Of a DNA stretch of 46,194 nt, positions 22,759-35,797 are shown piece after piece. The translations under genes were made by a program, and so were the position numbers. Every line of letters begins with the position of its first letter. Position 1 is the stretch's first letter. The stretch lies in the NCBI GenBank assembly GCA_030728985.1, contig JANQYI010000044.1, positions 1 through 46,194 of the forward strand, written 5' to 3'. Origin of the DNA: Burkholderiaceae bacterium. GTDB taxonomy: Bacteria > Pseudomonadota > Gammaproteobacteria > Burkholderiales > Burkholderiaceae_B. Under the pieces are notes generated by a model. It saw nothing but the letters and a program-made list of their open reading frames with translations, was not told the DNA's origin and searched no databases.

Positions 22759-22798
22759 TCCGGACACGCTCAAGATTGCGAGTCCGGAATTTTTTTAT
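22759..22798 (+). terminator. Rho-independent terminator after the FKBP gene
   Basis: TCCGGAC (22759-22765) pairs with GTCCGGA (22782-22788), with an inner CGC/GCG pair, followed by a run of T's. The hairpin overlaps the last codons of the minus-strand anti-sigma gene, so the two convergent units share sequence here. The minus strand lacks a T-run beyond the stem. Confidence 0.85.
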
Positions 22799-23012
22799 CT
22801 TTAGGATTTTCCATTCGATCCTGGTTGCGATCATCGGCACGACCTCTCGCATAGCCTCGAACGGCCTCGCGCAAAAAGTTCAACTGCTTTTCGTAGTTGC
22901 GACAGCCTCTGCACATCATGAGATGGGTACGCGTAGCCCATTTATCAGCGAAAGAAGGCTTTTTATCCTGTGCCTCGGATAAAAGCTGTGTAAGTTCAGC
23001 GCACGTTTTCAT
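22770..23012 (-). CDS. Zinc-finger (HC2-type) anti-sigma factor-like protein
   Basis: The 80-residue soluble protein contains HLMMCRGCRNYEKQ. With the N-terminal Cys4 (MKTCAEL) this gives the His-x3-Cys-x2-Cys zinc motif of ZAS-type anti-sigma domains. It has no membrane helix, so it would act in the cytosol by binding its partner sigma factor. The start overlaps the end of the sigma gene by four bases (ATGA), the usual arrangement for such a pair. The tail is charged and low in complexity. Because the sigma gene appears broken, this regulator may be without a partner. Confidence 0.85.
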   Translation of the reverse strand: MKTCAELTQLLSEAQDKKPSFADKWATRTHLMMCRGCRNYEKQLNFLREAVRGYARGRADDRNQDRMENPKDKKIPDSQS

Positions 23013-23520
23013 CTTTTCGTTTCCGTTTCAAACCATTTGATATTCAGACATTCACGCAAGCGCATGCGAGCGCGGTGCAAGATGACATTGAGATTCGTTA
23101 ATGTGATGTCCATTTCCTGACAAATCTCCTCGGTCGACATTTCTACAAACTCGCGCATCATGAAGGCGCGACCCTGCTTTGCGGGTAAATCATCCAAGCA
23201 GAGTTCAAAAACAGCCCAAAATTGGGTCTGACCCAAGGACTCCTGTGGATTCATCCACGTTGAAGGGCGCGAGTTGGGTTGCCAGTGGCCATTGGGTCGA
23301 AATGCGTCGGAAAAATCTTCCATTTCCTCGTCTTCCTGCAGCAGCACCCTTGCCTGTTCATGACGATATTTTTGGCGTAAAGCATCCGCGCCTCCTGAAC
23401 CACATCATCGGCTAAATGCGGATCCGATAGCTGTACTGTGGCAAAACGTAGCATTTGCTTGCGCAAATCCTGAAGAAAGGCGTCATTCGTAAGATCAGCC
23501 ACAGGTTCGTTCACGTTCAT
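23009..23520 (-). pseudogene. ECF-type sigma-70 family factor, disrupted by internal deletion and frameshift
   Basis: Two frames together make one sigma factor. From ATG 23520 the first encodes an N-terminal region ending LADDVVQEA at 23389, clearly sigma region 2.1-2.2. Directly afterwards, in another frame from 23386, DALRQKYRHEQARVLLQEDEEM begins, and this continues to 23009 with region 4 (LTNLNVILHRARMRLRECL). In intact relatives about 30 residues covering the rest of region 2 (2.3-2.4, -10 recognition) lie between VQEA and DALRQ. They are missing here and the frame changes, so translation would stop at 23251 after 89 residues. The ATGA overlaps with both neighbours are preserved. A true mutation and an assembly error are both possible. 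Confidence 0.78.
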
Positions 23521-24470
23521 GAGGACACCTGTCCCATGATGCGTGCGTAATATGAAATATACGCCTCCGACCCCTCGGGCCAATTATCGAGAAAGCGCGT
23601 GCGCCATTGCGCATGATCGTAAGGCACTGAAATCGCTGCGACCTCGACGCCATGAATCAGCGTTCGCTCAATGACGTTGAAACCGGGTAGCGTGGAGTTG
23701 TCAAATGGTGTCAGACTCACCCGGGTGATGACACCACAGAGCTGTCCTGAAAAATTAGGCATTCCTGCAGCGCCGTTATTAATCACAACGTTAACTCCTG
23801 CCTGGTGCGGACGCTGATGCAAAACAGGTTCACAGGTATGGCTCGACGCGAACACTTCGACCTGCGCCTGAGCAAAGGCTTCTCGCAACCAATCCGCAGA
23901 GATGGGATCCGAGGCTGTGGCGGCAAGCTCAGTGCGACTAAAACGCCAACCCGCCAAAGAATCCGCATCCCCATGCACGACACCGACCCGACAATCACCG
24001 ACCTTGTAGCGGGCGAACATCGGCAAAGCCTCCAAACGGACGGTGAGCTTTGGAAAGCGCGCGGCAGTTGATTTAAGACGGGCGTGAATCCGATTCGAAC
24101 GCTCGACCACTGCCGAATCAACCGAATCAGGATAGGCGCAACCACAACCGGCCTCCGCCCCCTCCACGCCTAATTCCGCTTCAACATTCCCGAGTACGGC
24201 ATCATGCTCAAGCACGCGAGACATCACCCACTGGAAACTATGATCGTCGACATTAAACCAATTAAAGTCACCGTTGAAACACACGCGCAGCTTGCCCATT
24301 TCCGAAACTACAAGCTTTTCGATGCAATCAAGCGCTTCGACATTGCCGTAAAGTCCTCCCACCACATAGAGCGTCTCAGTCTCGATTAGCGGCGCTGCGG
24401 CGATCGCAGAAGCGCCATAACGATATCGGAGAGGACAGCTACGGCCTGGGGCTTGTGGGTCATCCGTCAT
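23517..24470 (-). CDS. Metallophosphoesterase-like protein with degenerate metal site
   Basis: The 317-residue product follows the order of calcineurin-type phosphoesterase motifs. The first, usually D-x-H-GN, reads GGLYGNVEAL (38-47), with Gly and Tyr in place of Asp and His. Later blocks are NGDFNWF (66-72), VLGNVEAEL (92-100), VVHGD (His166, Asp168) and ASSHTCEP (His211). One metal site therefore looks lost, and the protein may be inactive, use one metal, or bind a ligand. The start at 24470 overlaps the ATPase stop by four bases (ATGA). It ends over the sigma-gene start, so it belongs to the transporter/regulator part of the arsenosugar-type operon. Confidence 0.65.
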   Translation of the reverse strand: MTDDPQAPGRSCPLRYRYGASAIAAAPLIETETLYVVGGLYGNVEALDCIEKLVVSEMGKLRVCFNGDFNWFNVDDHSFQWVMSRVLEHDAVLGNVEAELGVEGAEAGCGCAYPDSVDSAVVERSNRIHARLKSTAARFPKLTVRLEALPMFARYKVGDCRVGVVHGDADSLAGWRFSRTELAATASDPISADWLREAFAQAQVEVFASSHTCEPVLHQRPHQAGVNVVINNGAAGMPNFSGQLCGVITRVSLTPFDNSTLPGFNVIERTLIHGVEVAAISVPYDHAQWRTRFLDNWPEGSEAYISYYARIMGQVSS

Positions 24471-25294
24471 CGCGTCGTCTCCTGCATTGGAGCTTCGGAT
24501 CGTACAGAAAACGCAACGCGGAACTGATCCGAAGGACGACTGCAATCAGTCTGATAAAGTGCCAGTAGAGCACGATCTTCGACATCACCGACCGGAAGAT
24601 CAAAGGCGATCCTGCCTTGCCGCAAACCGATCACGCGATCCGCGATCAACGGCAACAAGCTCGTATTATGTACGACCGTTAACAAGGTCGCCCCACTCGC
24701 TGCCTGCACCAGCATTCGACATACCTCCACTGCGGCGGCGGGATCCAAAGCCGCGGTCGGCTCGTCCGCCAAAATCAATCGTGGTTGCTGCAATAACAAT
24801 CTGGCGATCGCAACCTTTTGTCGCTCACCACCAGACAAACGATCCGCACGCGTGTCTTTGTGTCCCAGCAAACCAACCCCTTGCAGCGCCTCGCAGGCCT
24901 GCTGGGTAATCCCATGGGGATAGAGTCGCAACCATGTGCGCCAACCCGATAGGCGCCCCAAAGCACCGATACACACATTGTCCAGAGCGCTGAGGCGCGC
25001 AACAAGATGCAAACCTTGAAAAACCTGCCCGACCTCACGCCTCCAGACGCGACGCGCACGACCACTCTGACTGCGGGAAGGCGAACGATCAAGCACATTG
25101 AGAGTGCCATGCGTAGGCGAGATCGCACCGGCAATCAAACGCAAAAGCGTTGACTTACCCGCACCGTTCGGACCCACCAGAGCGATTCGCTCGCCGGCGC
25201 TGACCTTGAGTGCGCCAATCTCTAACACGGTGCGTCCTTGGACGCTCCACAACACATCTTGCAACGAAATCACATTGGAGGTCATCGGACTCAT
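24467..25294 (-). CDS. ABC transporter ATP-binding protein, PhnC-like
   Basis: The 275-residue ATPase has Walker A GPNGAGKST (41-49), a Q-loop at GQVFQGLHLV, the signature LSGGERQKVAIARLL, Walker B LILADEPTAALD and a switch His in VVHNTSLL. It resembles the ATPases of phosphonate/phosphite importers. With the permease and binding protein just upstream it completes an import system. ATG 25294 overlaps the permease stop by four bases. The transported ion is not readable from this subunit. Confidence 0.9.
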   Translation of the reverse strand: MSPMTSNVISLQDVLWSVQGRTVLEIGALKVSAGERIALVGPNGAGKSTLLRLIAGAISPTHGTLNVLDRSPSRSQSGRARRVWRREVGQVFQGLHLVARLSALDNVCIGALGRLSGWRTWLRLYPHGITQQACEALQGVGLLGHKDTRADRLSGGERQKVAIARLLLQQPRLILADEPTAALDPAAAVEVCRMLVQAASGATLLTVVHNTSLLPLIADRVIGLRQGRIAFDLPVGDVEDRALLALYQTDCSRPSDQFRVAFSVRSEAPMQETTR

Positions 25295-26202
25295 GTCAGG
25301 CTCCGTCGGATACGACGACTCAAGGCATCAAAAGAAGTCACCAACAAAATGACGACCAGTAACACTGTCGCCAGTCGACCCCACTGGAACAGAGAAGTCG
25401 CCTCGGTGATCAGCAATCCCAGACCACCAGCGCCAATCATGCCAAGAATCGTCGAGTCACGAATATTGAACTCCCAGATATACAAATGACTCGATACGAA
25501 CTGTGGCAGCACTGCGGGCCAAATCGCGTTAAAAAAAACCTGGACCGGACCTGCTCCGACGCTTTGTACCGCATGCACGGCTTGCATATCGAGCGTCTCG
25601 ATCGACTCCGCGAATAGCTTGCCGTACGTCCCCATGGAGTGCAGGCCAATGGCCAGGATACCCGCGGTCGGCCCCAAGCCCACAATCCCCACCAAAACCA
25701 GTCCAAACACCAAGGTGTGGATAGAGCGCATCACATCAAGCACACCTTTGGCCAGCAACGCCAAAGGTTTGGGTGCGGACAAATTGCGCGCGGTTAATAC
25801 CGCGAGCGGAAGTGCCAAGACCGCACCCAGTAATGAACCCAGCGTTGCGATCGTGATGGTCGTCCAGGTGGCGCGCGCCAAACCAGCCAAATAGTCGAGC
25901 TCGATTTCCTGTCGATTTTCGACACGCAAGACACGGCCATCATCGCTGCGGTATTCGAGTGCGATGTCGCCAAACCAGACATCAAGAAAACTCGGATAAG
26001 AAAACTCTGAAGCAGTCTTGAGTAAATTCGCCCAAGGATTGCGACCGATCGACAGATCGCCGTCATGAATCAAAGACAACAAGCAGACAGCAATCAAAAC
26101 GACATAAATCAAAGTCAGCAGCAAAAATCCGACACGACCGCGCAGAAAATATTTTCCTGGTTGTCCGTCTGACATTGATGGATGCGTGTTGAGCGCTGAC
26201 AT
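25291..26202 (-). CDS. ABC transporter permease, PhnE-like
   Basis: The 303-residue inner-membrane permease has about six helices and a soluble insertion near residues 65-105 (SEFSYPSFLDVWFGDIALEYRSDDG). The core (LAGLARATWTTITIATLGSLLGA) and the coupling loop region (GMIGAGGLGLLITEATSLFQWG) are those of phosphonate-type permeases. I took ATG 26202; a TTG six bases earlier is also possible, and neither has a clear ribosome site, which suggests coupling to the binding-protein gene ten bases upstream. Confidence 0.87.
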   Translation of the reverse strand: MSALNTHPSMSDGQPGKYFLRGRVGFLLLTLIYVVLIAVCLLSLIHDGDLSIGRNPWANLLKTASEFSYPSFLDVWFGDIALEYRSDDGRVLRVENRQEIELDYLAGLARATWTTITIATLGSLLGAVLALPLAVLTARNLSAPKPLALLAKGVLDVMRSIHTLVFGLVLVGIVGLGPTAGILAIGLHSMGTYGKLFAESIETLDMQAVHAVQSVGAGPVQVFFNAIWPAVLPQFVSSHLYIWEFNIRDSTILGMIGAGGLGLLITEATSLFQWGRLATVLLVVILLVTSFDALSRRIRRSLT

Positions 26203-26211
26203 ATTCAATAT

Positions 26212-27090
26212 TTAACGCGGTCGCAACACACCCGTCGCCAGACCAGCGTCGCGGATTGGTTTATAAAACGTATTGTCACGCGTCACAAAGCCTGTGTAAT
26301 GCGCAGGCAAAAGGCGAGGTGACTGTTTCAATGCCGATCCGACCGACTCCAAGGCCTGTTGAAGTTGAGTCACAAAGTTTTTATCCGAAAAAAGTACCTT
26401 GCTTACCGCAAACGCGTCATTCGGCAAAGGATCGGACTGCCAAATAATTTTAGATTGCTCAGCCTTGATTAGACCCTGAGCGATCATCGCATTGCGGTTG
26501 CGATTGTAATCTGCTCCAGCATCCAGCACCCCTTGTGCGACTTGCGTCTCGATCGCCTGATGCTTGGTGTAGATCACCTTTTTAAAATACTTTTCCGGCT
26601 TGATACCCTGTGTCATAAAGAAATGAAGCGGGATCAAATAGCCCGAAGTGGAACCCTTGTCGCCAAACGCGAAGGTCTTGCCTTTCAGGTCCGCGATACT
26701 ATTAATGCCTGAGTTGGGGTGCGTCACGATAATGCCAAAATATTCAGGCTTATCGTCATAAAGAATCGTGGAAACCACCTGCGCACCCGCTTCATTGTTG
26801 GCTAAAACATACCCCCACGGACCCATCAGCGCCATATCCGTCTCGCCATTCGCGAGCGACTTGGCTAGCCCTTCCCAACTATCTACCGTACGCAATTCAA
26901 CGCGACGGTTGAGCTTAGCTGACAAGTACTCGGCCAAAGGCCGATAGGTCGCATCATTTTTTTCCCGGTCGGGCTGAAACATCCCCACACCAAATTTCAG
27001 CACAGGGCCGCGATCGACAGGCGACGCCACAGCAGTCACACTCGTCGCGAAAGCGATCGTAGTGAATAAATAAGCCAGCACTTTACGCAT
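26212..27090 (-). CDS. PhnD-like phosphate/phosphite/phosphonate-type ABC substrate-binding protein
   Basis: The 292-residue product has a signal peptide (residues 1-22, ending SVTAVASP) and a type II periplasmic binding fold. LKFGVGMFQPDREKNDATYRPLAEYLS, ETDMALMGPWGYVLAN and LKGKTFAFGDKGSTSGYLIP are PhnD-family landmarks; the last forms an oxyanion-binding loop (GSTSG). It would capture an oxyanion or organo-oxyanion in the periplasm. Given its place between DUF3047 and arsenosugar genes, an arsenic compound is an attractive but unproven ligand. AGGA precedes the ATG. Confidence 0.88.
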   Translation of the reverse strand: MRKVLAYLFTTIAFATSVTAVASPVDRGPVLKFGVGMFQPDREKNDATYRPLAEYLSAKLNRRVELRTVDSWEGLAKSLANGETDMALMGPWGYVLANNEAGAQVVSTILYDDKPEYFGIIVTHPNSGINSIADLKGKTFAFGDKGSTSGYLIPLHFFMTQGIKPEKYFKKVIYTKHQAIETQVAQGVLDAGADYNRNRNAMIAQGLIKAEQSKIIWQSDPLPNDAFAVSKVLFSDKNFVTQLQQALESVGSALKQSPRLLPAHYTGFVTRDNTFYKPIRDAGLATGVLRPR

Positions 27091-27110
27091 TCAGAATCCT
27101 AAAGTCTAAA

Positions 27111-27875
27111 TCATGAAGCCGATGGAAAGACACAAGGAGCATCGCGTCCCACAAAATGCAAATCTGCAAAACCTGCATGCGCCTTCGATTTCGTGTTGTC
27201 CGTATCTGAGGCCAACGCCAATAAACTAATTTTGGCCTGATCACTCCCGTAGGCTTTCACGACATCGGACAATACATCCACGCGCTCCGATACCCAGGTG
27301 CCCGCCTGAGCCGTACCGCTGCGCTGCACAATCATCTGCGTCCGATCGGTATACGCATTGAATTGACGATGACCGACAGGATTTTTATTGTCCCAAATGT
27401 AATTCAACGCGGCATCTGGCACGTGCTCACCATACAAATTACGCGCAAACTGCAGTTTGAAACGCAAACCAAAGTCAATTTTATCGGCAGGCAACTTAAA
27501 GGCAACGTATACCCTTGCGGCATAATCATCGCCCATCTTGGTATTCATATCGGCATTTTGTACAACATCCTCTACGCGCCAACGCCAACAAAGTATGGGG
27601 GTGGCCTTCAAATCAACCTCAACTCCGCGTGCGAGTAGCGCCATACTCGCATTTGCTTTCGCCTCGACCGCCGGGACGCCGTCCCAAACGCGCGTTTGAT
27701 AAAAAGTCGGCGCGATCTTGGTATCAAACTGAATGATGCGCCAAGGCTCTGGAACAGGACCTGTCATCGCCGGGAAACTTCCAACGACATTTGCTCCCGA
27801 CTGGGCGTGTCCAGCACCCGACACAACCGCAGCAACAGCTGCAACCAACAATACGAACTCACGCTTGAGTCTCAA
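27111..27875 (-). CDS. DUF3047 domain protein, secreted
   Basis: The product is about 254 residues. A signal peptide (RLKREFVLLVAAVAAVVSGAGHAQS) precedes a DUF3047 domain with ILCWRWRVEDVV, MGDDYAARVYVAF and LNYIWDNK. The function of DUF3047 is unknown; it is a periplasmic beta-rich domain. An upstream ATG at 27950 would overlap the preceding gene and spoil the signal peptide. I chose TTG 27875 because CGGAGA lies six bases before it; a GTG two codons earlier lacks spacing. The start choice is moderately sure. It sits between the arsenosugar transferase genes and the PhnD-like gene. Confidence 0.82.
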   Translation of the reverse strand: MRLKREFVLLVAAVAAVVSGAGHAQSGANVVGSFPAMTGPVPEPWRIIQFDTKIAPTFYQTRVWDGVPAVEAKANASMALLARGVEVDLKATPILCWRWRVEDVVQNADMNTKMGDDYAARVYVAFKLPADKIDFGLRFKLQFARNLYGEHVPDAALNYIWDNKNPVGHRQFNAYTDRTQMIVQRSGTAQAGTWVSERVDVLSDVVKAYGSDQAKISLLALASDTDNTKSKAHAGFADLHFVGRDAPCVFPSAS

Positions 27876-27903
27876 TTCCACTCTCCGATTCGGTACGGAT
27901 TTT

Positions 27904-28515
27904 TTATTTGAATTCAATAGGCAAAAATGCAAGATCCTCGGGCTCGTCAATATCGCGCAAGGTATCCAGCTGGGTCACATGCCACCCCAGATACTCGATA
28001 CGATGCATGGTTTCTCGGAACACTTGATCAGTACTCCACGTCATGTCTTGAAAAATACTGGCATCGAACTGGCTCAGTCCGAGTAAAACATAGCCGCCAT
28101 CATGCGCGGGCGCAATGACCACTGGATCTTGACGCAATGCGTGAGCGGCTTCTTTTAAATGCTTTACCTCGAGAGCGAGACAGTCGGTCCCGATGCACAG
28201 CACATTCTCATCGCGCGCCAAGGTGCGCAACACTGCATCCGCCATACGTGCCCCAAGATCACCCTCGGCCTGACGACTCCACACTACCTCAGGTGGCACA
28301 TCGAGCGCACGCAGCGTGGCATGTTCTGGCTCAGGCGCCACGCAAAGTTCAATAGGACCAAGATCCGCCTGCATCGCGACTTCGACGGTGCGACACAACA
28401 TTTTCGCAGCGAGCGCCGCAGCGCCCTCCTCGCCCAGCGCTCCGATCAAACGGGTCTTGCAAAACCCAGGAATCGGCGCTTTGGCAAAAATCACGATGCG
28501 AGTCGGTCTATGCAT
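27904..28515 (-). CDS. TIGR04282-type arsenosugar biosynthesis glycosyltransferase
   Basis: The 203-residue product has the DUF2064 nucleotidyl/glycosyltransferase fold. RIVIFAKAPIPGFCKTRL opens it, followed by GDLGARMADA, CIGTDCLAL and PAHDGGYVLLGL. This family (rSAM/selenodomain-associated transferase 1) is recurrent beside ArsS-type radical SAM genes and is named for arsenosugar biosynthesis. I chose ATG 28515, which gives the usual family start; a TTG four codons upstream is the alternative. It follows the TIGR04283 gene by eight bases. Its sugar donor and acceptor are unknown. Confidence 0.88.
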   Translation of the reverse strand: MHRPTRIVIFAKAPIPGFCKTRLIGALGEEGAAALAAKMLCRTVEVAMQADLGPIELCVAPEPEHATLRALDVPPEVVWSRQAEGDLGARMADAVLRTLARDENVLCIGTDCLALEVKHLKEAAHALRQDPVVIAPAHDGGYVLLGLSQFDASIFQDMTWSTDQVFRETMHRIEYLGWHVTQLDTLRDIDEPEDLAFLPIEFK

Positions 28516-28523
28516 CTCATCAC

Positions 28524-29195
28524 TCAACGATATAAACGTGCAAGCTCACTGGCCGGAACTCCTCGCCAGTATGCCCAGCGCAAACGCCACATCAGTAGAA
28601 TCGTTTTCCAGACACCGTTTTGGTCCCAGCGGCGTCCAGATGTCACCACACGCTCGGGCAAACATACCGGGGGACTGAGTCGCTTGAGACGTTTACTCAT
28701 TTCGATGTCCTCCATCAGAGGCTGCTCTGGAAAACCACCGACCTTATTGAACGCTTCACGCGTCATAAAAATAGTCTGATCGCCAGTCGCGATGCCCGTG
28801 AGCCTTGAGCGCCAGTTCATACAGAAACTGATCACCTTGAGCCAGGGCGAACTTCCAACAATGCGCACGTCAAAACGTCCCCAACTACTCTTGCCATTGA
28901 GATGATGTTCAATCTGATACAAGGTACCACGCGGAAGATGCGTATCAACATGCAGAAAAACTAACAGGTCACTTTGCGCGGCGCGCGCGCCCGCATTCAT
29001 TTGTCGCGCACGTCCACGCACGGACTCCAATATGTCAAACCCAGCGTCTCGCGCCAACTGAACCGTCCGGTCATTGCTCCCACCGTCCACCAGTAGCACC
29101 TGAGCGCCCATCGCACGCAACACATCAAATTCGTTCAATTGCTGAGAAAGTACCGCACTCTCATTTAGAACGGGAACGATGATCAGCGTTTTCAC
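28524..29195 (-). CDS. TIGR04283-type arsenosugar biosynthesis glycosyltransferase (GT2 fold)
   Basis: The 223-residue product is a family-2-like glycosyltransferase. IIVPVLNES, VLLVDGGSNDRTVQLARDAG and VFLHVDTHLPRG (the metal-binding DxD region read as HVDTH) are present. It has the characteristic KVGGFPEQPLMEDIEMSKRLK. The family is rSAM/selenodomain-associated transferase 2, found with ArsS and TIGR04282. The start codon is GTG at 29195, immediately after the stop of the DedA-flavoprotein gene. It probably extends the ribosyl arsenical or its derivative; the specific step is unproven. Confidence 0.88.
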   Translation of the reverse strand: MKTLIIVPVLNESAVLSQQLNEFDVLRAMGAQVLLVDGGSNDRTVQLARDAGFDILESVRGRARQMNAGARAAQSDLLVFLHVDTHLPRGTLYQIEHHLNGKSSWGRFDVRIVGSSPWLKVISFCMNWRSRLTGIATGDQTIFMTREAFNKVGGFPEQPLMEDIEMSKRLKRLSPPVCLPERVVTSGRRWDQNGVWKTILLMWRLRWAYWRGVPASELARLYR

Positions 29196-29198
29196 AAA

Positions 29199-31382
29199 CT
29201 AGCCCCGACGCCATGCGTGATAACGAGCGAGCCACTTCATGACTGTTTGATTGGTATGCGCGCGGCGCCACTCACCAGCGACATATTTATTCGCCTCTGA
29301 TAAAGTCGGGTAGGTATGAATCGTGCCAAGAATTTTATTTAATCCCAAACCATGCTTCATCGCCAGCACAAATTCAGCCAACAAGTCACCAGCGTGCTCA
29401 CCAACGATCGTCACGCCTAAAATTTTATCTTTGCCCGGGACGGTGAGGACTTTTACAAAACCATGGTCTGTGCCATCCGCGATCGCACGATCCAAATCGT
29501 CGATGCCATAGCGCGTCACCTCAACAGCGATCCCTTTTTGTACAGCCTCTTGCTCATTCAAGCCCACCCGAGCGATTTCCGGCGAAGTAAAAGTCGCTGC
29601 AGGAATCACCGAATAATCGACCTTAAAACGTTTGAACTGACCAAAGAGTGCGTTGACCGAGGCATACCAAGCCTGATGTGCCGCTGTATGCGTGAACTGA
29701 TAGGGACCTGCCACATCGCCTGCCGCATAAATATTGGGATATAGCGTCTCGAGATACTCGTTGGTGACCACCGTGCGTTGAGTCGGAATCCCCAACTCCT
29801 CCAGACCATAGCCCTGAAGGCGCGCCACTCGGCCCACCGCGCACAACAACTCATCAAACTCGATGTGACGCTCAATGCCGCCGTGTTCGACAACGATTGT
29901 CTTGACAGTGACACCATCGGCCTCTCTGCACTCGCAACGCAAGGCTTTGTGTTCCGTCAAAATTGTCACGCCATCGCTGCGCATCGATTCGGTCAAGATC
30001 TCTGAGACCTCCGCATCCTCACGACTCAGTAAGCGTCCCGCCATTTCAATCTGCGTGACCTGCACACCCAGTCTCGCGAAAGCTTGCGTGAGTTCACAAC
30101 CGATCGGACCGCCACCTAGGACAACAAGGCGCTTAGGCGGCGCATCGAACATAGAGAATTTTTCCCACAGCGTATCGCTTGTCACATAGCCGACCTCATC
30201 CAAGCCAGGCAGCGGCGGTACAAAAGGCTGAGCACCGGCAGCAATCACGATACTGCGCGTCGTTAACGTCTGTGTCACACCGTGTTCGTTTTTGATTTCG
30301 ACGGTCCAAGGATTGATGACACGACCATAGCCCTGCAAAACTTCTACACCCAATGCGGTATAGCGCTCGACGCTATCATGCGGTTCGATTTTTTTGATGA
30401 CCTCGTTGACTCTAGCCATCACCTGACGAAAACTGAACTCAGGTTGCGCCGCTTTCAAGCCATAATGATCCGCCTGGCGGATCTGCTGGGCGAGCTTGGC
30501 GCTTTTGATCAAAGCCTTACTGGGAACGCAGCCATAATTCAGGCAATCTCCGCCCATCTTATGGGCCTCAACCAAAGTCACCCGGGCCTTGACCGCCGCC
30601 GCAATATAAGAGGTCACGAGACCTGCCGCACCAGCGCCAATCACCACCACATTGCGGTCAAATTTTGATGGCTTGAGATGATTCCATTTTGCATAAATCT
30701 TATTTTTCTTAAAGATATCGAGTATTTTTTTGGTGATCAGTGGAAATAAGCCCAGAGCGGCCAAGGATAATAAAATAGGGAACGAAATAATTCCCTTAAG
30801 TGATTCAATCGCGGCAAGCTGTGTACCCGCATTGACATAGATCACCGTCCCCGCCAGCATCCCCACCTGACTCACCCAGTAATACGTCAGGGTGCGCATC
30901 TTGGTCAGTCCCATCAAGAGGTTGATGAGAAAAAATGGGAAGACTGGCACCAAACGCAAGGTAAACAAATAAAACGCGCCCTCTTTTTCAATCCCGTCAT
31001 TCATGGGTTTGAGCTTTTCGCCGAAACGTTGCTGCACCCAGTCGCGTAGGACGTAACGCGCCGCTAAAAAAGCCAGTGTCGCACCAACGGTCGAGGCAAA
31101 CGACACCAACACAAAGCCCTGCACAAAGCCAAAAATTGCACCACCCGCAAGCGTTAGGACCAACGCGCCAGGCAGTGAAAGCGCCGTAGTCAAAACATAG
31201 AGAAAGAAATATCCGAGGGCCATTTGTAGCGGCGCGGCATCACGCCACGCATGCAGCTGCGCAAGTCCTGATTTCAGCCCTTCAAGCGTCATCTTCTGAT
31301 GCAAATCAAAGCTAAAAAATAATGTTAGTAACCCAATCGCCACCAACAATATCAGGATCCGCGTGGCCGTCTTTTGATTCAT
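29199..31382 (-). CDS. TVP38/DedA-type membrane domain fused to FAD-dependent disulfide oxidoreductase
   Basis: The 727-residue product has two parts. Residues about 1-230 form a TVP38/TMEM64 (DedA-like) membrane domain, with FGFVQGFVLVSFASTVGATLAF and LRLVPVFPFFLINLLMG. Residues about 243-727 form a class I pyridine nucleotide-disulfide oxidoreductase: VVVIGAGAAG, redox-active CLNYGC (Cys280 and Cys285), NAD motif LVVLGGGPIGCELTQAFA, FAD motif IYAAGDVAG and C-terminal HTYPTLSEANKY. It lacks an N-terminal mercury-binding domain and a terminal Cys pair. Such fusions are known, but their substrate is not. ATG 31382 overlaps the arsS stop by four bases, so translation is coupled. Confidence 0.9.
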   Translation of the reverse strand: MNQKTATRILILLVAIGLLTLFFSFDLHQKMTLEGLKSGLAQLHAWRDAAPLQMALGYFFLYVLTTALSLPGALVLTLAGGAIFGFVQGFVLVSFASTVGATLAFLAARYVLRDWVQQRFGEKLKPMNDGIEKEGAFYLFTLRLVPVFPFFLINLLMGLTKMRTLTYYWVSQVGMLAGTVIYVNAGTQLAAIESLKGIISFPILLSLAALGLFPLITKKILDIFKKNKIYAKWNHLKPSKFDRNVVVIGAGAAGLVTSYIAAAVKARVTLVEAHKMGGDCLNYGCVPSKALIKSAKLAQQIRQADHYGLKAAQPEFSFRQVMARVNEVIKKIEPHDSVERYTALGVEVLQGYGRVINPWTVEIKNEHGVTQTLTTRSIVIAAGAQPFVPPLPGLDEVGYVTSDTLWEKFSMFDAPPKRLVVLGGGPIGCELTQAFARLGVQVTQIEMAGRLLSREDAEVSEILTESMRSDGVTILTEHKALRCECREADGVTVKTIVVEHGGIERHIEFDELLCAVGRVARLQGYGLEELGIPTQRTVVTNEYLETLYPNIYAAGDVAGPYQFTHTAAHQAWYASVNALFGQFKRFKVDYSVIPAATFTSPEIARVGLNEQEAVQKGIAVEVTRYGIDDLDRAIADGTDHGFVKVLTVPGKDKILGVTIVGEHAGDLLAEFVLAMKHGLGLNKILGTIHTYPTLSEANKYVAGEWRRAHTNQTVMKWLARYHAWRRG

Positions 31383-32365
31383 GATTCTTTCAAGGCTCCA
31401 CCACAACTACTGCCTTGACCAGCGGTACATCCATAACAATGATCCGCCACGACAATCGAGCGACCGGCAATATCGACACCCATTAAATCTTTGAGATGCA
31501 GACCGCGGTCCAGATCGGCTATTTTTTCGATCGTACGCGGCAACGGCAAAGCCAGTTGCTGATTGAAGTCACAGTCATACAGATAGCCCTCCCAATCCAC
31601 ACTCACCAAGCTGCGACACATCACACCCGCCAGATTCGCCTGCTGATAACTGTTACGCAGCAATTCCATGTAGCCTTTAAACGTACCCTTGGAAATGAGC
31701 ATCGAACCAAAACGCTGAATCGGCATATTCGTCAAGGCATAGAGTTCGTTAAACACAATACCAAAATGTTTAGCCAACTCGCGCTTGTAGTCGCTTTGTA
31801 AGGCACCTTGCTCGGGCGGTAGCGAGGGTCCTTGCGGGTTATAGACAAGATTCAAGACCAAAGATGAACCGTGCTGACCATAACCCAACGCATTAAGACG
31901 CTTCAGCCCGGTGATACTCTTGTCAAACACGCCTTGGCCGCGTTGCTTATCGACATTTTCCAATGAATAACAGGGCATTGAGGCAATCACCTCAACGCTC
32001 TGCTCCGCCAGAAACTCGGCGAGATCCTCGTAGCCGGGTTCAAGCAAAATCGTCAGATTGCAGCGGTCGATTACTCGCACACCCATCGCACGCGCCGCGA
32101 TGACGAGACGCCTGAACGAGACATGCAATTCAGGGGCTCCACCCGTCAGATCCAACACTTCGATTTTGCGGTCTTTGAGCACCTGCAACACGAGATCGAT
32201 ATTCGCCTCATCCATCATTTCGGTACGATTTGGACCTGCATTGACATGACAATGCACACAAGACTGGTTGCAGCGATACCCCAGATTGACCTGAAGCGTC
32301 GTCAGCGCATCTCGTTTGATCCGTGGGAAATCGGTATCTTTCAGCAAAGGTAAAGTCGCGTGCAT
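31379..32365 (-). CDS. arsS: Arsenosugar biosynthesis radical SAM protein ArsS
   Basis: The 328-residue product is a radical SAM enzyme with the CxxxCxxC cluster motif at Cys32, Cys36 and Cys39 (GYRCNQSCVHCHVNAG). The C-terminal domain (DUF3641) closes with HCYGCTAGQGSSCGGAL, whose cysteines (310, 313, 321) are typical of ArsS. Studied ArsS enzymes transfer a 5'-deoxyadenosyl group to dimethylarsenical, giving 5'-deoxy-5'-dimethylarsinoyl-adenosine. All positions that can be Sec in relatives are Cys codons here. AGGATC precedes the ATG. It follows the 32417 flavoprotein gene by 51 bases and overlaps the DedA-flavoprotein gene. Confidence 0.93.
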   Translation of the reverse strand: MHATLPLLKDTDFPRIKRDALTTLQVNLGYRCNQSCVHCHVNAGPNRTEMMDEANIDLVLQVLKDRKIEVLDLTGGAPELHVSFRRLVIAARAMGVRVIDRCNLTILLEPGYEDLAEFLAEQSVEVIASMPCYSLENVDKQRGQGVFDKSITGLKRLNALGYGQHGSSLVLNLVYNPQGPSLPPEQGALQSDYKRELAKHFGIVFNELYALTNMPIQRFGSMLISKGTFKGYMELLRNSYQQANLAGVMCRSLVSVDWEGYLYDCDFNQQLALPLPRTIEKIADLDRGLHLKDLMGVDIAGRSIVVADHCYGCTAGQGSSCGGALKES

Positions 32366-32416
32366 GGTGATCCTATGTCCTTGATATGCAGTGAGTCGCT
32401 GCAGGGGGTGTTTTTA

Positions 32417-33532
32417 TTACACTTTATTCCAGCTAAATTTTTTAATAAATCCTCGATCAATCCAATCTTTGAGTCGCCAGACCCAATGTCCCTCAAAGGA
32501 AACTCGCCCCCAGGAAGCAATCGCGTACTGAGGACCGCAGGCTAATAAGTACAGTGAACTCTTTCTGGGTTGATAGTCCTTCAGAACAGCCGCTGAATCA
32601 GCCAATACGGTATAGAGATTGTCTGCAAGCACAGGGCCCGTCTTGACCGCATGCACACCAGAACGGGCCATGTGGACATCCGTTCGCGCACAGGTATCTC
32701 CCACCGCAAAGACTTCTGGATGGGACTGCGTTCGATGACAAGCATCCACTAAAATATAGCCTTGTTCGTTGAGCGACAGCCCCGATTGCCGTAACCACGA
32801 CAAGGGTTTTGCTCCCGTCGCGGCGATGACCTGGTCCGCATAGATGCGGTGACCATCCGAAAATTGCAAACCGTCGACGACCCCCGTCGCAGCTTGCTGG
32901 TACAACACAATACCCACTTTGCGCGTATAGGCCAGCACGCGCCGACGTACCGAGTCATGATGCCCGTTGAGCATACCGTCTGGTGAAACCACAAGCGTCA
33001 CATGCTCCTGCGCGCCAGCACGCTTGAGTGCGAACTGCGCGGCAAACGCAAGCTCCACACCCGCAGCCCCTCCGCCAATGACGACCAGCGCATAATCCTT
33101 TTGATTAATGGCCTTTTTTTGAATCTCCGGCCACTGATCAAAAAAATCATCTAACGGTTTAACAGGTAACAAGCGCACACCTAGTGCTGAGAGACCCTCA
33201 GTTTGAGTTTCACTGCCAACATCCAGAGACAAAAAATCATAGGTCACCTGTTGACCGTCCGATAAAGTCAGCGTTCGCGTATCCGCCGACATCGCTGTCA
33301 CACTCGCCGTGATCATGCGAACGCCGGACGCCTCAACCAAAGGCTGCAAATCAACCCTGCTCTGCTCTCGGGTATAGTGACCGGCAATCCAGCCCGGCAA
33401 CATGCCGGAATAATTTTGGTAACGATTCGGCGTGATCAGGATCACCTCCGTTCCCGCTATTGTTGCGTGGGCGAGCTTTTCAAGAACAGAAAGATGGGCA
33501 TGCCCACCTCCTACGAGGACTAAACGCTTCAT
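32417..33532 (-). CDS. NDH-2-like FAD/NAD(P) oxidoreductase, SelD-fusion type (TIGR03169-like)
   Basis: The 371-residue product has VLVGGGHAHLSVLEKL at the start and an unusually His-rich first Rossmann loop. ITPNRYQNYSGMLPGWIAGHY and VVIGGGAAGVELAFA (second dinucleotide site) follow, then VFAVGDTCAR as the FAD-binding end. This matches the flavoproteins that also occur fused to selenophosphate synthetase. Here it stands alone, with no SelD domain. Its role in the cluster is unknown; it may supply or recycle a thiol or selenol reductant. It is the first gene of the leftward operon, with GGAG just before the ATG. Confidence 0.87.
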   Translation of the reverse strand: MKRLVLVGGGHAHLSVLEKLAHATIAGTEVILITPNRYQNYSGMLPGWIAGHYTREQSRVDLQPLVEASGVRMITASVTAMSADTRTLTLSDGQQVTYDFLSLDVGSETQTEGLSALGVRLLPVKPLDDFFDQWPEIQKKAINQKDYALVVIGGGAAGVELAFAAQFALKRAGAQEHVTLVVSPDGMLNGHHDSVRRRVLAYTRKVGIVLYQQAATGVVDGLQFSDGHRIYADQVIAATGAKPLSWLRQSGLSLNEQGYILVDACHRTQSHPEVFAVGDTCARTDVHMARSGVHAVKTGPVLADNLYTVLADSAAVLKDYQPRKSSLYLLACGPQYAIASWGRVSFEGHWVWRLKDWIDRGFIKKFSWNKV

Positions 33533-33587
33533 GACACTCCATCGTTTTTGGATCGTCTACTGCACATTTTTTTGATATCTGTCTGTA

Positions 33588-33615
33588 TAGTCGTGATCGC
33601 GGACGGTTTTCTTAC
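33588..33615 (-). promoter_or_regulatory. Speculative ECF-type promoter at the head of the arsenosugar-type operon
   Basis: On the minus strand GTAAG and CGACTA are separated by 17 bases, about 55 bases before the start at 33532. Many ECF promoters have an AAC/AAG-like -35 and a CGTC/CGAC-like -10. The operon's own ECF sigma makes this worth noting. The motif is short and could be chance. The other 153 bases of the divergent gap show nothing clearer for the plus-strand gene. Confidence 0.2.
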
Positions 33616-33685
33616 ACTTCCCTCATCATAGTGTTAAAAAATCTTTACCGAGTTCATGAAAAGATTGAAAAAAGCGAGGTTCAGC

Positions 33686-34576
33686 ATGCAACAGCCCCGA
33701 ATTGGTGTGATTGGTGGAAGCGGTCTCTATCACATGGAGGCGCTTGAAAACCCCGTCGAACACGCGCTGACGACGCCTTTCGGCGCACCCTCTGATGTCC
33801 TGGTGACCGGGATCATCGCAGGAGTTCCGGTCGCCTTTCTGGCCAGACACGGACGCGAACATAAATTACTGCCCTCCGAACTCCCCTTCCGCGCCAATAT
33901 TCATGCGTTTAAACAACTCGGCGTCAAATACCTGCTCTCTGTTTCGGCCGTGGGTTCCTTGCGTGAGGACTACCGACCACTTGATATGGTGCTTCCCGAT
34001 CAATTCATCGATCTGACTAAAAAACGAGAAAGTACATTTTTTGGTGCCGGTGCCGTCGCCCATGTCTCGATGGCCGAACCGATCTGCGCCAAGCTCACCG
34101 ATATTTTGGCACGCGCCTGGGTCGAAAGCGGGGGACAAACTGAATCGCTGGAGCGACCTATCCTGCATCGGGGCGGCACCTACGTTTGCATCGAAGGTCC
34201 CCAGTTCTCCTCGATCGCCGAGTCACACTGGTATCGTTCGATGGGTGCTAGCGTGATCGGCATGACCAATATGCCCGAGGCCAAACTTGCACGCGAAGCG
34301 CAAATCGCCTATGCCAGTCTGGCCATGGTGACAGATTTTGATTGCTGGCATCCGCGTGAGGCCAATGTGACGGCAGAATCCGCGATCGCGAATCTCATGA
34401 AAAATGCAGAGACTGCCCAAAAGATATTGCTCCAAGCCATCAGCCTGTTGGGTAAAGAATGCCCAGACTCTGACGCACATCACGCGCTGGCCAGTGGACT
34501 GGTGACTCAACCTCAAGACATGAGCCCCGACGTCCTTGAAAGACTTCGTGTCATCCTCGGAAAGGACCTTGTTTAA
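33686..34576 (+). CDS. mtnP: S-methyl-5'-thioadenosine phosphorylase family protein
   Basis: The 296-residue product is of the MTAP branch of the purine nucleoside phosphorylases. GVIGGSGLYHMEALE, LARHGREHKLLPSELPFRANIHAFK, SVSAVGSLREDYRPLDMVLPDQFID and the adenosine-pocket region TNMPEAKLAREAQIAYASLAMVTDFDCWH closely parallel human MTAP. I chose ATG 33686 because GCGAGG lies seven bases upstream; the ATG at 33656 adds ten basic residues not seen in the family. It is divergent from the arsS operon. It may serve methionine salvage, or split the ArsS product DDMAA into adenine and an arsenosugar phosphate, which is inference. Confidence 0.88.
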   Translation: MQQPRIGVIGGSGLYHMEALENPVEHALTTPFGAPSDVLVTGIIAGVPVAFLARHGREHKLLPSELPFRANIHAFKQLGVKYLLSVSAVGSLREDYRPLDMVLPDQFIDLTKKRESTFFGAGAVAHVSMAEPICAKLTDILARAWVESGGQTESLERPILHRGGTYVCIEGPQFSSIAESHWYRSMGASVIGMTNMPEAKLAREAQIAYASLAMVTDFDCWHPREANVTAESAIANLMKNAETAQKILLQAISLLGKECPDSDAHHALASGLVTQPQDMSPDVLERLRVILGKDLV

Positions 34577-34583
34577 AGGGTGA

Positions 34584-35177
34584 TTACCCCATCACCAATA
34601 GTCCGCTAGCACCTAGAGCCGCACCAATCGCCAACAGCAAAAGCATATGGATTTTGGTGCGATAAACGATCACAGCGGTAACGGCCGCCAACAACCACAG
34701 TGGCCAGTCACGCACGCCATCCGTGTTGGCGGTCGCCAACAGCCAGCCTGCCGCGACCATCATCGAAATCACGACAGGGCTGAGACCGAGTTTAAAGGCA
34801 CGCACAGCGCGTAAGTGTTGATTCGCCTGAACCCAACGGGCTGTTACGAAAATCAGCACCGAACTCGGCAATAAAATCCCTGCCATACAAATCACTGCGG
34901 CAAAGGGTGCCCACCCAAAACCACCCGCATTCAGGCCGATGTTCCATCCCATCAACGCCACAAACATCACATTCGGCCCGGGTGAGGCCTGCGCAATAAC
35001 GATCGAAGCGCTGAACTGGGCGTCCGTGAGCCAACTCTGCTGAACAACCAGAAATTGATAAATCTCCGGCAGCAACACCAGAGGACCGCCTACGGAGGCG
35101 ATCGAAATCGAAGCGAAGTGTTTAAACAAATTGAACCAATCCGTCCACAGCATCGCTAACGTCAAGGTCTCGTTCAT
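34584..35177 (-). CDS. Chromate transporter family half (ChrA-like, second)
   Basis: The 197-residue membrane protein has about six helices. SVGGPLVLLPEIYQFLV and ASPGPNVMFVALMGW match the conserved FGG...P and SPGP motifs of the CHR family. I chose ATG 35177 because it overlaps the preceding stop by four bases (ATGA) and removes a non-family extension. Together with the next gene it forms a split, two-subunit chromate/oxyanion transporter. It converges on the phosphorylase gene with only seven bases between stops. Confidence 0.88.
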   Translation of the reverse strand: MNETLTLAMLWTDWFNLFKHFASISIASVGGPLVLLPEIYQFLVVQQSWLTDAQFSASIVIAQASPGPNVMFVALMGWNIGLNAGGFGWAPFAAVICMAGILLPSSVLIFVTARWVQANQHLRAVRAFKLGLSPVVISMMVAAGWLLATANTDGVRDWPLWLLAAVTAVIVYRTKIHMLLLLAIGAALGASGLLVMG

Positions 35178-35797
35178 GCTTGATCCTTGAGCTTGAGGAA
35201 AGCAAGAACATAACCAATCCCGCCTAGTACGATCAGCACATACAACAATCGCCATTGCAAAATCGCAATCCCCACGAAACTCAAGATCACGAGTGCTGCG
35301 CACACTTTCACACCCAATGGGTTGGTTTTAAGCGCAGACAACAACTTAAGTCCTGTCGCACCGATCATTCCGGCTGCGACCGCCCCCATTCCTCGCAGCG
35401 CATCAACAATCTGCGGCTGATTTCCGAAGTGCGCATACGCAATCGCCAACGTCAAAATAATCATCGTTGGGAACATAAACATTCCCGCCAAAGAAACGAG
35501 TGCTCCACGCCAGCCGAAGTGTTTAGCGCCAACCATGATGCAAAGATTGAGTGCTGGTGGACCGGGCATGGTTCGCGCGATGGACCACTCCTCCACAAAC
35601 TCTGTACGCGTCATCCATTTCTTTTTATCGACCAGTTCACGCTCGATAAAGGCGAGGACACCGCCAAACCCCTGAATCGCGAGCATACTGAACGTATTGA
35701 ATAATTCGCCTAAAGAATGCGGGTGCTGTTTCTGCGGTGTGGTCATGAGTGAAGCGATCAGGCAAGTCAGAAGCGCAATTAGCGCAAGAGACCACAT
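35174..35797 (-). CDS. Chromate transporter family half (ChrA-like, first)
   Basis: The 207-residue protein has LFNTFSMLAIQGFGGVLAFIERELV, then ARTMPGPPALNLCIMVGAKHFGWRG, the counterpart of the SPGP motif. A first hydrophobic stretch, MWSLALIALLTCLIASL, precedes the family start. GGAG upstream of 35797 supports including it, while a second ATG at 35746 lacks a ribosome site. The pair of half-size proteins is the short-chain CHR arrangement. Transport of chromate is the name-giving case, but sulfate or other anions are possible. Confidence 0.87.
   Translation of the reverse strand: MWSLALIALLTCLIASLMTTPQKQHPHSLGELFNTFSMLAIQGFGGVLAFIERELVDKKKWMTRTEFVEEWSIARTMPGPPALNLCIMVGAKHFGWRGALVSLAGMFMFPTMIILTLAIAYAHFGNQPQIVDALRGMGAVAAGMIGATGLKLLSALKTNPLGVKVCAALVILSFVGIAILQWRLLYVLIVLGGIGYVLAFLKLKDQA

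What the first reader, a model, noticed from the sequence alone, without database searches (positions are those of the whole stretch)
22770..34576. Arsenosugar-type biosynthesis operon with its own importer and sigma/anti-sigma pair
Seen: one leftward run of 12 genes with very small gaps joins a TIGR03169-like flavoprotein, ArsS, a DedA-flavoprotein fusion, TIGR04283 and TIGR04282 transferases, DUF3047, a PhnD/E/C-like transporter, a phosphoesterase-like protein, an ECF sigma and a zinc anti-sigma, with an MTAP homologue divergent. Known: ArsS makes deoxyadenosyl-dimethylarsinoyl product and the two transferases recur with it. Inferred: the additional transport, DUF3047 and regulatory genes extend that pathway into a dedicated, regulated organoarsenic (or selenium) system. 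No arsM is present in the window.
Basis: partly seen in the sequence, partly recalled or inferred. Interest (0 to 1): 0.85.

Follow-up and report, generated by a model that had tools for sequence, protein, structure and literature searches.

The report
Arsenic-sugar operon with substitute import module
This is a real, tightly packed bacterial operon of the arsenic-sugar type in which the usual arsenic-methylating enzyme is missing and an importer plus an unstudied phosphoesterase-like protein stand in its place, which suggests that the cell may take up its starting compound ready-made.

Summary
Twelve leftward genes (22770-33532, gaps -28 to +51 bp) encode TIGR03169, ArsS, DedA-flavoprotein, TIGR04283, TIGR04282, DUF3047, a PhnD/E/C-type importer, a phosphoesterase-like protein ('MPE') and a sigma/anti-sigma pair; MTAP is divergent. 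The sigma frame is broken in this assembly.

The PhnD, an HtxB-like 'hybrid', follows ArsS too (27 of 30). MPE loci carry phnDE(C) (31 of 80 named loci) or a sodium symporter (29), never both. Other operons carry arsM in that slot; no locus of 119 has both cis-ArsM and MPE, and two species of one genus show the exchange. No arsM was detected in the window's genome, nor in 24 of 27 other MPE genomes tested. ArsS hardly differs between the two operon types.

Best reading: an ArsM-independent arsenosugar-type pathway importing a (probably methylated) arsenic oxyanion. Ligand, MPE reaction and product are unproven; a reduced-phosphorus substrate is not excluded.

The parts
32417..33532 (-). TIGR03169 flavoprotein (pyridine nucleotide-disulfide oxidoreductase family)
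   Evidence: 344.3 bits, cut-off 310
31379..32365 (-). ArsS, radical SAM (TIGR04167)
   Evidence: 460.7 bits, cut-off 300
29199..31406 (-). DedA/VTT membrane domain fused to an FAD disulfide oxidoreductase
   Evidence: PF09335, PF07992 and PF02852 over cut-off
28524..29195 (-). TIGR04283 glycosyltransferase-like
   Evidence: 271.9 bits, cut-off 182
27904..28527 (-). TIGR04282 glycosyltransferase-like
   Evidence: 205.8 bits, cut-off 134
27111..27950 (-). DUF3047 protein; predicted mostly beta fold (start uncertain)
   Evidence: PF11249 220.3 bits; model pLDDT 93.6; Foldseek best E 2.7e-6
26212..27090 (-). PhnD-type periplasmic binding protein, nearest solved relative HtxB, 'hybrid' pocket
   Evidence: TIGR01098 over cut-off
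25291..26208 (-). PhnE-type permease
   Evidence: TIGR01097 232.6 bits, cut-off 216.7
24467..25294 (-). PhnC-type ATPase
   Evidence: best match TIGR02315 191.2 bits, below cut-off 266.1
23517..24470 (-). MPE: metallophosphoesterase-fold protein with altered first motif and invariant cysteines
23009..23520 (-). ECF sigma gene (TIGR02943-like), frame broken in this assembly
   Evidence: two pieces in different frames
22770..23012 (-). zf-HC2 anti-sigma factor
   Evidence: NF052368 68.2 bits, cut-off 50; PF13490
33656..34576 (+). MTAP-type nucleoside phosphorylase, divergent
   Evidence: TIGR01694 312.8 bits, cut-off 274.85

Best explanation
An arsenosugar-type biosynthesis operon of an ArsM-independent kind. 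The PhnDEC importer brings in an oxyanion of arsenic, most likely a methylated one (dimethylarsinate or methylarsonate) made by neighbouring microbes. The two flavoproteins help to bring As(V) to As(III). ArsS adds the 5'-deoxyadenosyl group. The MTAP homologue removes adenine, and TIGR04283, TIGR04282 and DUF3047 build or bind the glycosylated product. MPE, a metallophosphoesterase-fold protein with a remodelled cysteine-bearing site, acts on the imported compound or on an early intermediate. Shown here: gene content, recurrence, association of MPE and PhnD with ArsS, exchange with ArsM at one locus position, and HtxB-like pocket residues. Inferred: ligand, direction of transport, every reaction and the product.
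For: MPE in 58 of 399 genomes, 57 with ArsS; PhnD in 30, 27 with ArsS and 26 with MPE; by genus 32 of 32 and 17 of 17. No locus of 119 with both cis-ArsM and MPE (0/40/17/62, p 6e-4); of 16 genomes with cis-ArsM only G132 has MPE, at its other arsS locus. Same-genus exchange, G115 against G251. 45 of 57 ArsS+MPE+ genomes of the order and 24 of 27 other MPE genomes have no ArsM hit; none in the window genome. ArsS of 17 cis-ArsM loci and 45 MPE-without-ArsM loci: one differing consensus column, 122 shared. DedA-flavoprotein kept in 31 of 33 MPE loci and 13 of 15 ArsM loci. MPE loci carry one of two unrelated importers, never both, in 60 of 80 named loci.
Against: No binding or chemical data. 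The nearest solved PBP binds hypophosphite, and a Ciceribacter protein with similar pocket residues sits beside a phytanoyl-CoA dioxygenase and no arsS within about 6 kb. 12 of 57 ArsS+MPE+ genomes have an ArsM hit, as do 3 of 27 others. 36 of 119 ArsS genomes have neither MPE nor ArsM. A Roseomonas plasmid has phnDEC-MPE with radical SAM proteins below the ArsS cut-off. MPE's role is unexplained. Fisher tests ignore shared descent except for the genus-level count.
Confidence: 0.45

Rival explanations
1. ArsS in these operons uses imported reduced phosphorus (hypophosphite or phosphite). The operon builds a phosphorus analogue of an arsenosugar, with MPE working on P intermediates.
For: The PBP is nearest to HtxB; MPE has a phosphoesterase fold; ArsM is mostly absent.
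Against: ArsS sequences hardly differ between ArsM and MPE operons; flavoproteins are retained; in 29 of 80 loci a sodium symporter stands instead.
Confidence: 0.18
2. The importer brings in inorganic arsenic (arsenate or arsenite). Methylation is done by an undetected enzyme or is not needed.
For: AioX and ArrX, binding proteins named for arsenic systems, belong to the same superfamily.
Against: They are distant (about 45-48 bits against 163 for HtxB). The exchange with a methyltransferase gene suggests that methylated arsenic is what is supplied.
Confidence: 0.15
3. PhnDEC and MPE are phosphate-stress genes that relieve arsenate-phosphate competition or salvage phosphate and only keep company with ArsS.
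For: PhnDEC and phosphoesterases are common phosphorus genes (recalled). 19 of 80 named loci have phn genes and no arsS label in the locus.
Against: 57 of 58 MPE genomes have ArsS, and 25 of 26 tested genomes whose MPE locus lacks arsS have it elsewhere: too tight for a general phosphorus response. The first metal-ligand motif of active phosphoesterases is missing.
Confidence: 0.15

Closest known systems
Arsenosugar biosynthesis, ArsM plus ArsS (Cheng et al. 2021, seen only as cited in PMC12159101)
   Same: ArsS and the two transferase families that NCBIfam names for arsenosugar biosynthesis; same gene series as ArsM-bearing operons of the order
   Different: No ArsM; importer plus MPE in its place; further conserved genes (DUF3047, DedA-flavoprotein, TIGR03169, sigma/anti-sigma)
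HtxBCDE hypophosphite importer and 'HtxB-like' hybrids (PMC5700983, PMC6629693, passages read)
   Same: PhnD-type binding protein, conserved W, Y, T, S, R and D of the pocket; S/H/Y-or-F changes as in the hybrids
   Different: Tied to ArsS genomes in this order; no dioxygenase or phosphite dehydrogenase among the twelve genes; ligand unknown
SapH-type metallophosphoesterases (3qfn)
   Different: First motif G-x-Y instead of D-x-H (motif recalled), last H-x-H is H-x-C, four invariant cysteines
Arsinothricin cluster arsQML (PMC8552651, listing and start of abstract only)
   Same: Organoarsenical biosynthesis in Burkholderiales
   Different: Has ArsM; its radical SAM enzyme (per PMC12159101 passages) transfers a 3-amino-3-carboxypropyl group

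Membership tests
Arsenosugar biosynthesis system | ArsS over the TIGR04167 cut-off | tested here: met
   460.7 of 300 bits
Arsenosugar biosynthesis system | TIGR04282 and TIGR04283 partners | tested here: met
   205.8/134 and 271.9/182 bits
Arsenosugar biosynthesis system | ArsM to supply dimethylarsenic | tested here: not met
   best hit 37.4 bits in an 86.66% complete genome
Arsenosugar biosynthesis system | Makes an arsenosugar | not testable with these tools
   needs arsenic speciation of cultures
PhnD (equivalog TIGR03431) | Score over cut-off | tested here: not met
   170 of 261.1 bits
HtxB hypophosphite-binding protein | Pocket residues N128, F158, M176 that exclude a third oxygen | tested here: not met
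   S147, H177, Y195 by the alignment; residues from PMC6629693
HtxB-like hybrid subfamily (PMC6629693) | N128 to S, F158 to H, M176 to Y/F with W52, R178, D206 kept | tested here: met
Catalytic metallophosphoesterase | Fold | tested here: met
Catalytic metallophosphoesterase | D-x-H first motif (recalled) | tested here: not met
   G33-G34-x-Y36 invariant in 28 of 28 aligned
TIGR02943 ECF sigma | Intact protein over cut-off | tested here: not met
   146.4 of 162.2 bits in the best piece; frame broken
MTAP (TIGR01694) | Score over cut-off | tested here: met
   312.8 of 274.85 bits

The most novel reading that the evidence does not exclude
In operons without ArsM, ArsS is fed by imported reduced phosphorus rather than arsenic: PhnDEC (HtxB-like hybrid) brings in hypophosphite or phosphite, ArsS forms a carbon-phosphorus bond to 5'-deoxyadenosine, and MPE, MTAP and the transferases turn it into a phosphorus analogue of an arsenosugar, a kind of natural product not known to me.
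Probability: 0.18. Interest if true: 0.9.

Novelty: new variant of a known kind. Interest (0 to 1): 0.62.

Why it matters
Arsenosugars are major organic arsenic compounds of aquatic food webs (recalled), yet the bacterial route beyond ArsM and ArsS is open. If ArsM-less bacteria scavenge methylated arsenic, arsenosugar formation is a community process, surveys that count arsM miss producers, an unnamed protein family (MPE) gains a pathway, and the orphan HtxB-like hybrid binding proteins gain a candidate ligand. Binding assays and gene removals can test this directly.

Tried and rejected
Chance adjacency: rejected; the parts recur over many genera and the association holds when counted by genus. 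Selenium: no direct support found; TIGR04167 and TIGR03169 carry selenium-linked names and TIGR04167 is listed among selenoprotein families (passages of PMC13188914 and PMC9312934), but the window's ArsS frame is open without an in-frame stop; not pursued further. A hidden ArsM: the cluster ArsM of sister operons scores about 160-190 bits on NF008823 (178.5), the window genome's best is 37.4. DUF3047 fold search: matches to axonemal chains of doublet microtubules and to GH12/CBM4 chains (best E 2.7e-6), no function inferred. Phylum-wide PhnD search: 1 of 339 genomes at E 1e-60, the window itself; how many of the 339 lie outside the order was not told. Wrong accessions: searches (TIGR04345 is ovoA_Cterm; NF000755 is PRK00046, recalled as MurB), both discarded.

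Label checks that changed counts: the ArsM label of L082 (36 bits) and of L189 (44 bits) and five sigma labels (36-50 bits) are weak and were dropped; the tree and the comparison still had L082 among 18 ArsM rows; the comparison was redone without it (0 differing columns became 1).

Rows dropped or missed: of 123 ArsS places, one is the window, 120 were fetched, 2 were not (G212:C626, G357:C387). L072 and L092 got no arsS label. Locus labels miss genes: the MPE of G338 and G364 lies beside arsS but was not labelled, so cis counts are lower bounds. In one search, 69 of 80 loci had MPE labelled and 47 arsS (one weak). Of 33 loci without an arsS label, 26 were tested genome-wide; L162, L170, L176, L177, L199 and L228 were not submitted and L223 was not held. 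In some searches only the top 5 or 6 candidates of a genome were scored.

Papers: ten full-text searches; no listing showed, by title or the shown start of the abstract, a paper on importer or phosphoesterase genes with ArsS; two searches returned none; most subscription papers are not held. Passages only were read in PMC12159101, PMC5700983, PMC6629693, PMC10138600, PMC13188914, PMC9312934, PMC12124457, PMC13077682 and PMC8801600. A reference in PMC12124457 names an ArsSM fusion protein in a sulfate reducer (not read).
Full report

NEIGHBOURHOOD SURVEY. ArsS (TIGR04167, E 1e-60) is in 119 of 399 genomes of the order, at 123 places. I fetched 120 of the 122 places other than the window and labelled them with profiles built from the clusters; 118 of these and the window got an arsS label. 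With weak labels dropped these 119 loci hold: DedA-flavoprotein 76, TIGR04283 75, TIGR04282 61, DUF547 40, MPE 40, TIGR03169 37, DUF3047 33, cis-ArsM 17, sigma 12, anti-sigma 10, CMD peroxidase-like 10, sodium symporter 9, MTAP 8, PhnE 7, PhnD 5. MPE also occurs on 46 Burkholderia plasmids and one Azonexus plasmid (tblastn); the Burkholderia rows listed are all B. glumae. Both B. glumae regions that I opened have arsS directly before MPE, with MTAP, TIGR04282, TIGR04283, sigma and zf-HC2 genes; no arsM is among the listed genes, but that gene table is incomplete by the tool's own account.

ASSOCIATION WITH ARSS. In the same 399 genomes MPE (profile A1, E 1e-30) is in 58, of which 57 have ArsS; the exception G242 belongs to a genus in which ArsS was found in others. 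The hybrid PhnD (profile A3, E 1e-50) is in 30, of which 27 have ArsS and 26 have MPE. Fisher p values are 3e-34 and 1e-12 for ArsS and 9e-21 for PhnD with MPE; they ignore shared descent. Counted by genus, all 32 MPE genera and all 17 PhnD genera are among the 57 ArsS genera of 159 (p 3e-18 and 5e-9). A scan of named genomes with MPE kept the best 80 of 472 relatives. In these, arsS is labelled in 47 loci. Of 26 tested genomes whose locus showed no arsS, 25 have it elsewhere (the tally there is 26 of 27 because L190's genome, which has arsS in the locus, was included). PhnD/E genes are in 31 of the 80 loci and a sodium:solute symporter in 29, never both.

EXCHANGE WITH ARSM. No locus of the 119 has both cis-ArsM and MPE (0 with both, 40 MPE only, 17 ArsM only, 62 neither; p 6e-4), and no strong ArsM label is in the 80 named loci. 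Of 16 genomes with cis-ArsM only G132 has MPE, beside its other arsS. In the window phnD-E-C-MPE follows TIGR04282-DUF3047, where ArsM lies in L044, L046, L066 and L112. The clearest case is one genus: G115 has arsS, DedA-flavoprotein, TIGR04283, TIGR04282, DUF3047, ArsM and an aquaporin; G251 has the same series, then four other ORFs, then symporter and MPE. The genes further downstream look alike by eye, though I did not align them. G251 has no ArsM hit. In the ArsS tree (119 rows, quick ML) the window falls in a 16-row clade with 9 cis-ArsM rows (SH-aLRT 88, below the 95 mark), and the seven PhnD/E-bearing rows need seven changes, which suggests repeated gain or loss. Against strict exclusion: 12 of 57 ArsS+MPE+ genomes have an ArsM hit somewhere, against 26 of 62 ArsS genomes without MPE (p 0.018); 3 of 27 named genomes do; 36 of 119 ArsS genomes have neither MPE nor ArsM. 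The window genome has no ArsM hit above 37.4 bits.

SAME ENZYME, DIFFERENT SUPPLY? ArsS sequences from 17 cis-ArsM loci and from 45 loci of MPE genomes without ArsM differ in one column where both groups have a 75% consensus, and share 122 columns at 90%. The ten cysteine columns are at 100% in the ArsM group and 96-100% in the MPE group (with L082 still among 18). The DedA-flavoprotein is retained in 31 of 33 MPE loci and 13 of 15 ArsM loci with full flanks. This favours an unchanged ArsS substrate and hence import of a methylated arsenical, but it is indirect.

THE BINDING PROTEIN. Its nearest solved relative is HtxB, the hypophosphite-binding protein (163 bits; PtxB 90, ArrX 48, AioX 48; profile search: 258, PtxB-type 119, AioX 79). 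With pocket residues from PMC5700983 and PMC6629693 (passages), HtxB W52, P71, Y97, T129, S130, R178 and D206 are kept, while N128, F158 and M176 are S147, H177 and Y195. PMC6629693 describes this pattern (S, H, Y or F) for 'HtxB-like' proteins, models a larger pocket for them, and suggests phosphite as a ligand without testing it. The pattern is not specific to ArsS operons: a Ciceribacter plasmid protein with S, H and F lies beside a phytanoyl-CoA dioxygenase, which by recall resembles HtxA. A reduced-phosphorus ligand is therefore a serious rival.

MPE. Across 28 aligned members the motifs GRxCP, GGLYGN, NGDFxWF, GNVExE, GCGCxYP, HGD, HTC and NNGAAGMPNF are invariant or nearly so. By recall the usual first motif is D-x-H and the last H-x-H, so ligands of one metal are gone or replaced while those of the other remain, with four invariant cysteines. 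A 25%-identical Roseomonas protein keeps GG-x-Y and CGC and lies behind phnDEC, next to two radical SAM proteins that do not reach the ArsS cut-off.

VERDICT. A real, conserved operon: a new variant of the arsenosugar-type pathway with importer plus MPE where other operons have ArsM. Import of methylated arsenic is my best reading (0.45). Reduced phosphorus, inorganic arsenic and a phosphorus-stress hitchhiker remain open.

Noticed in passing
L287:2040-12765 (Roseomonas haemaphysalidis plasmid): TIGR04282, DUF547, two radical SAM proteins (neither over the ArsS cut-off), phnD-E-C, MPE-like and DedA/FAD genes together: a possible parallel pathway with a different radical SAM enzyme in an alphaproteobacterium.
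   Followed up: partly
L285, L286 (Burkholderia glumae plasmids): Plasmid-borne arsS-MPE cluster with MTAP, both transferases, sigma/zf-HC2, CcdA, thioredoxin and a second, TrsS/Tes-like radical SAM protein.
   Followed up: partly
L071, L090, L122, L142, L144, L145, L148, L156, L158, L159: A separate ArsS clade with a TIGR04169 peroxidase-like gene just upstream and none of the other labelled operon genes apart from distant ABC or desaturase labels in a few loci.
   Followed up: no
L279:8078-8860 (G115): An aquaporin-family gene directly after the cluster ArsM, a possible exit or entry path for arsenic.
   Followed up: no
L278:8855-11181 (G251): Two ORFs that look like ergothioneine-type EgtD and EgtB (by recall, not scanned) between the ArsS series and symporter-MPE.
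   Followed up: no
window 34584-35797, minus strand: Two overlapping ORFs that look like the halves of a chromate transporter (by recall, not scanned), next to the MTAP gene.
   Followed up: no
G003 (L052, L266): The only other ArsS genome listed from the window's family has the same arsS coordinates as the Limnobacter litoralis genome (G417, L224); there arsS, ArsM and phnDEC-MPE lie on three different contigs.
   Followed up: partly
NCBIfam models NF049985 and NF049973: Models named for an SBP-like protein (Rv1680) and a radical SAM protein (Rv1681) give weak hits to the window PhnD (31.3 bits) and a better one to the Roseomonas radical SAM protein (94.9 bits), hinting at a wider PhnD-like/radical SAM pairing.
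   Followed up: no
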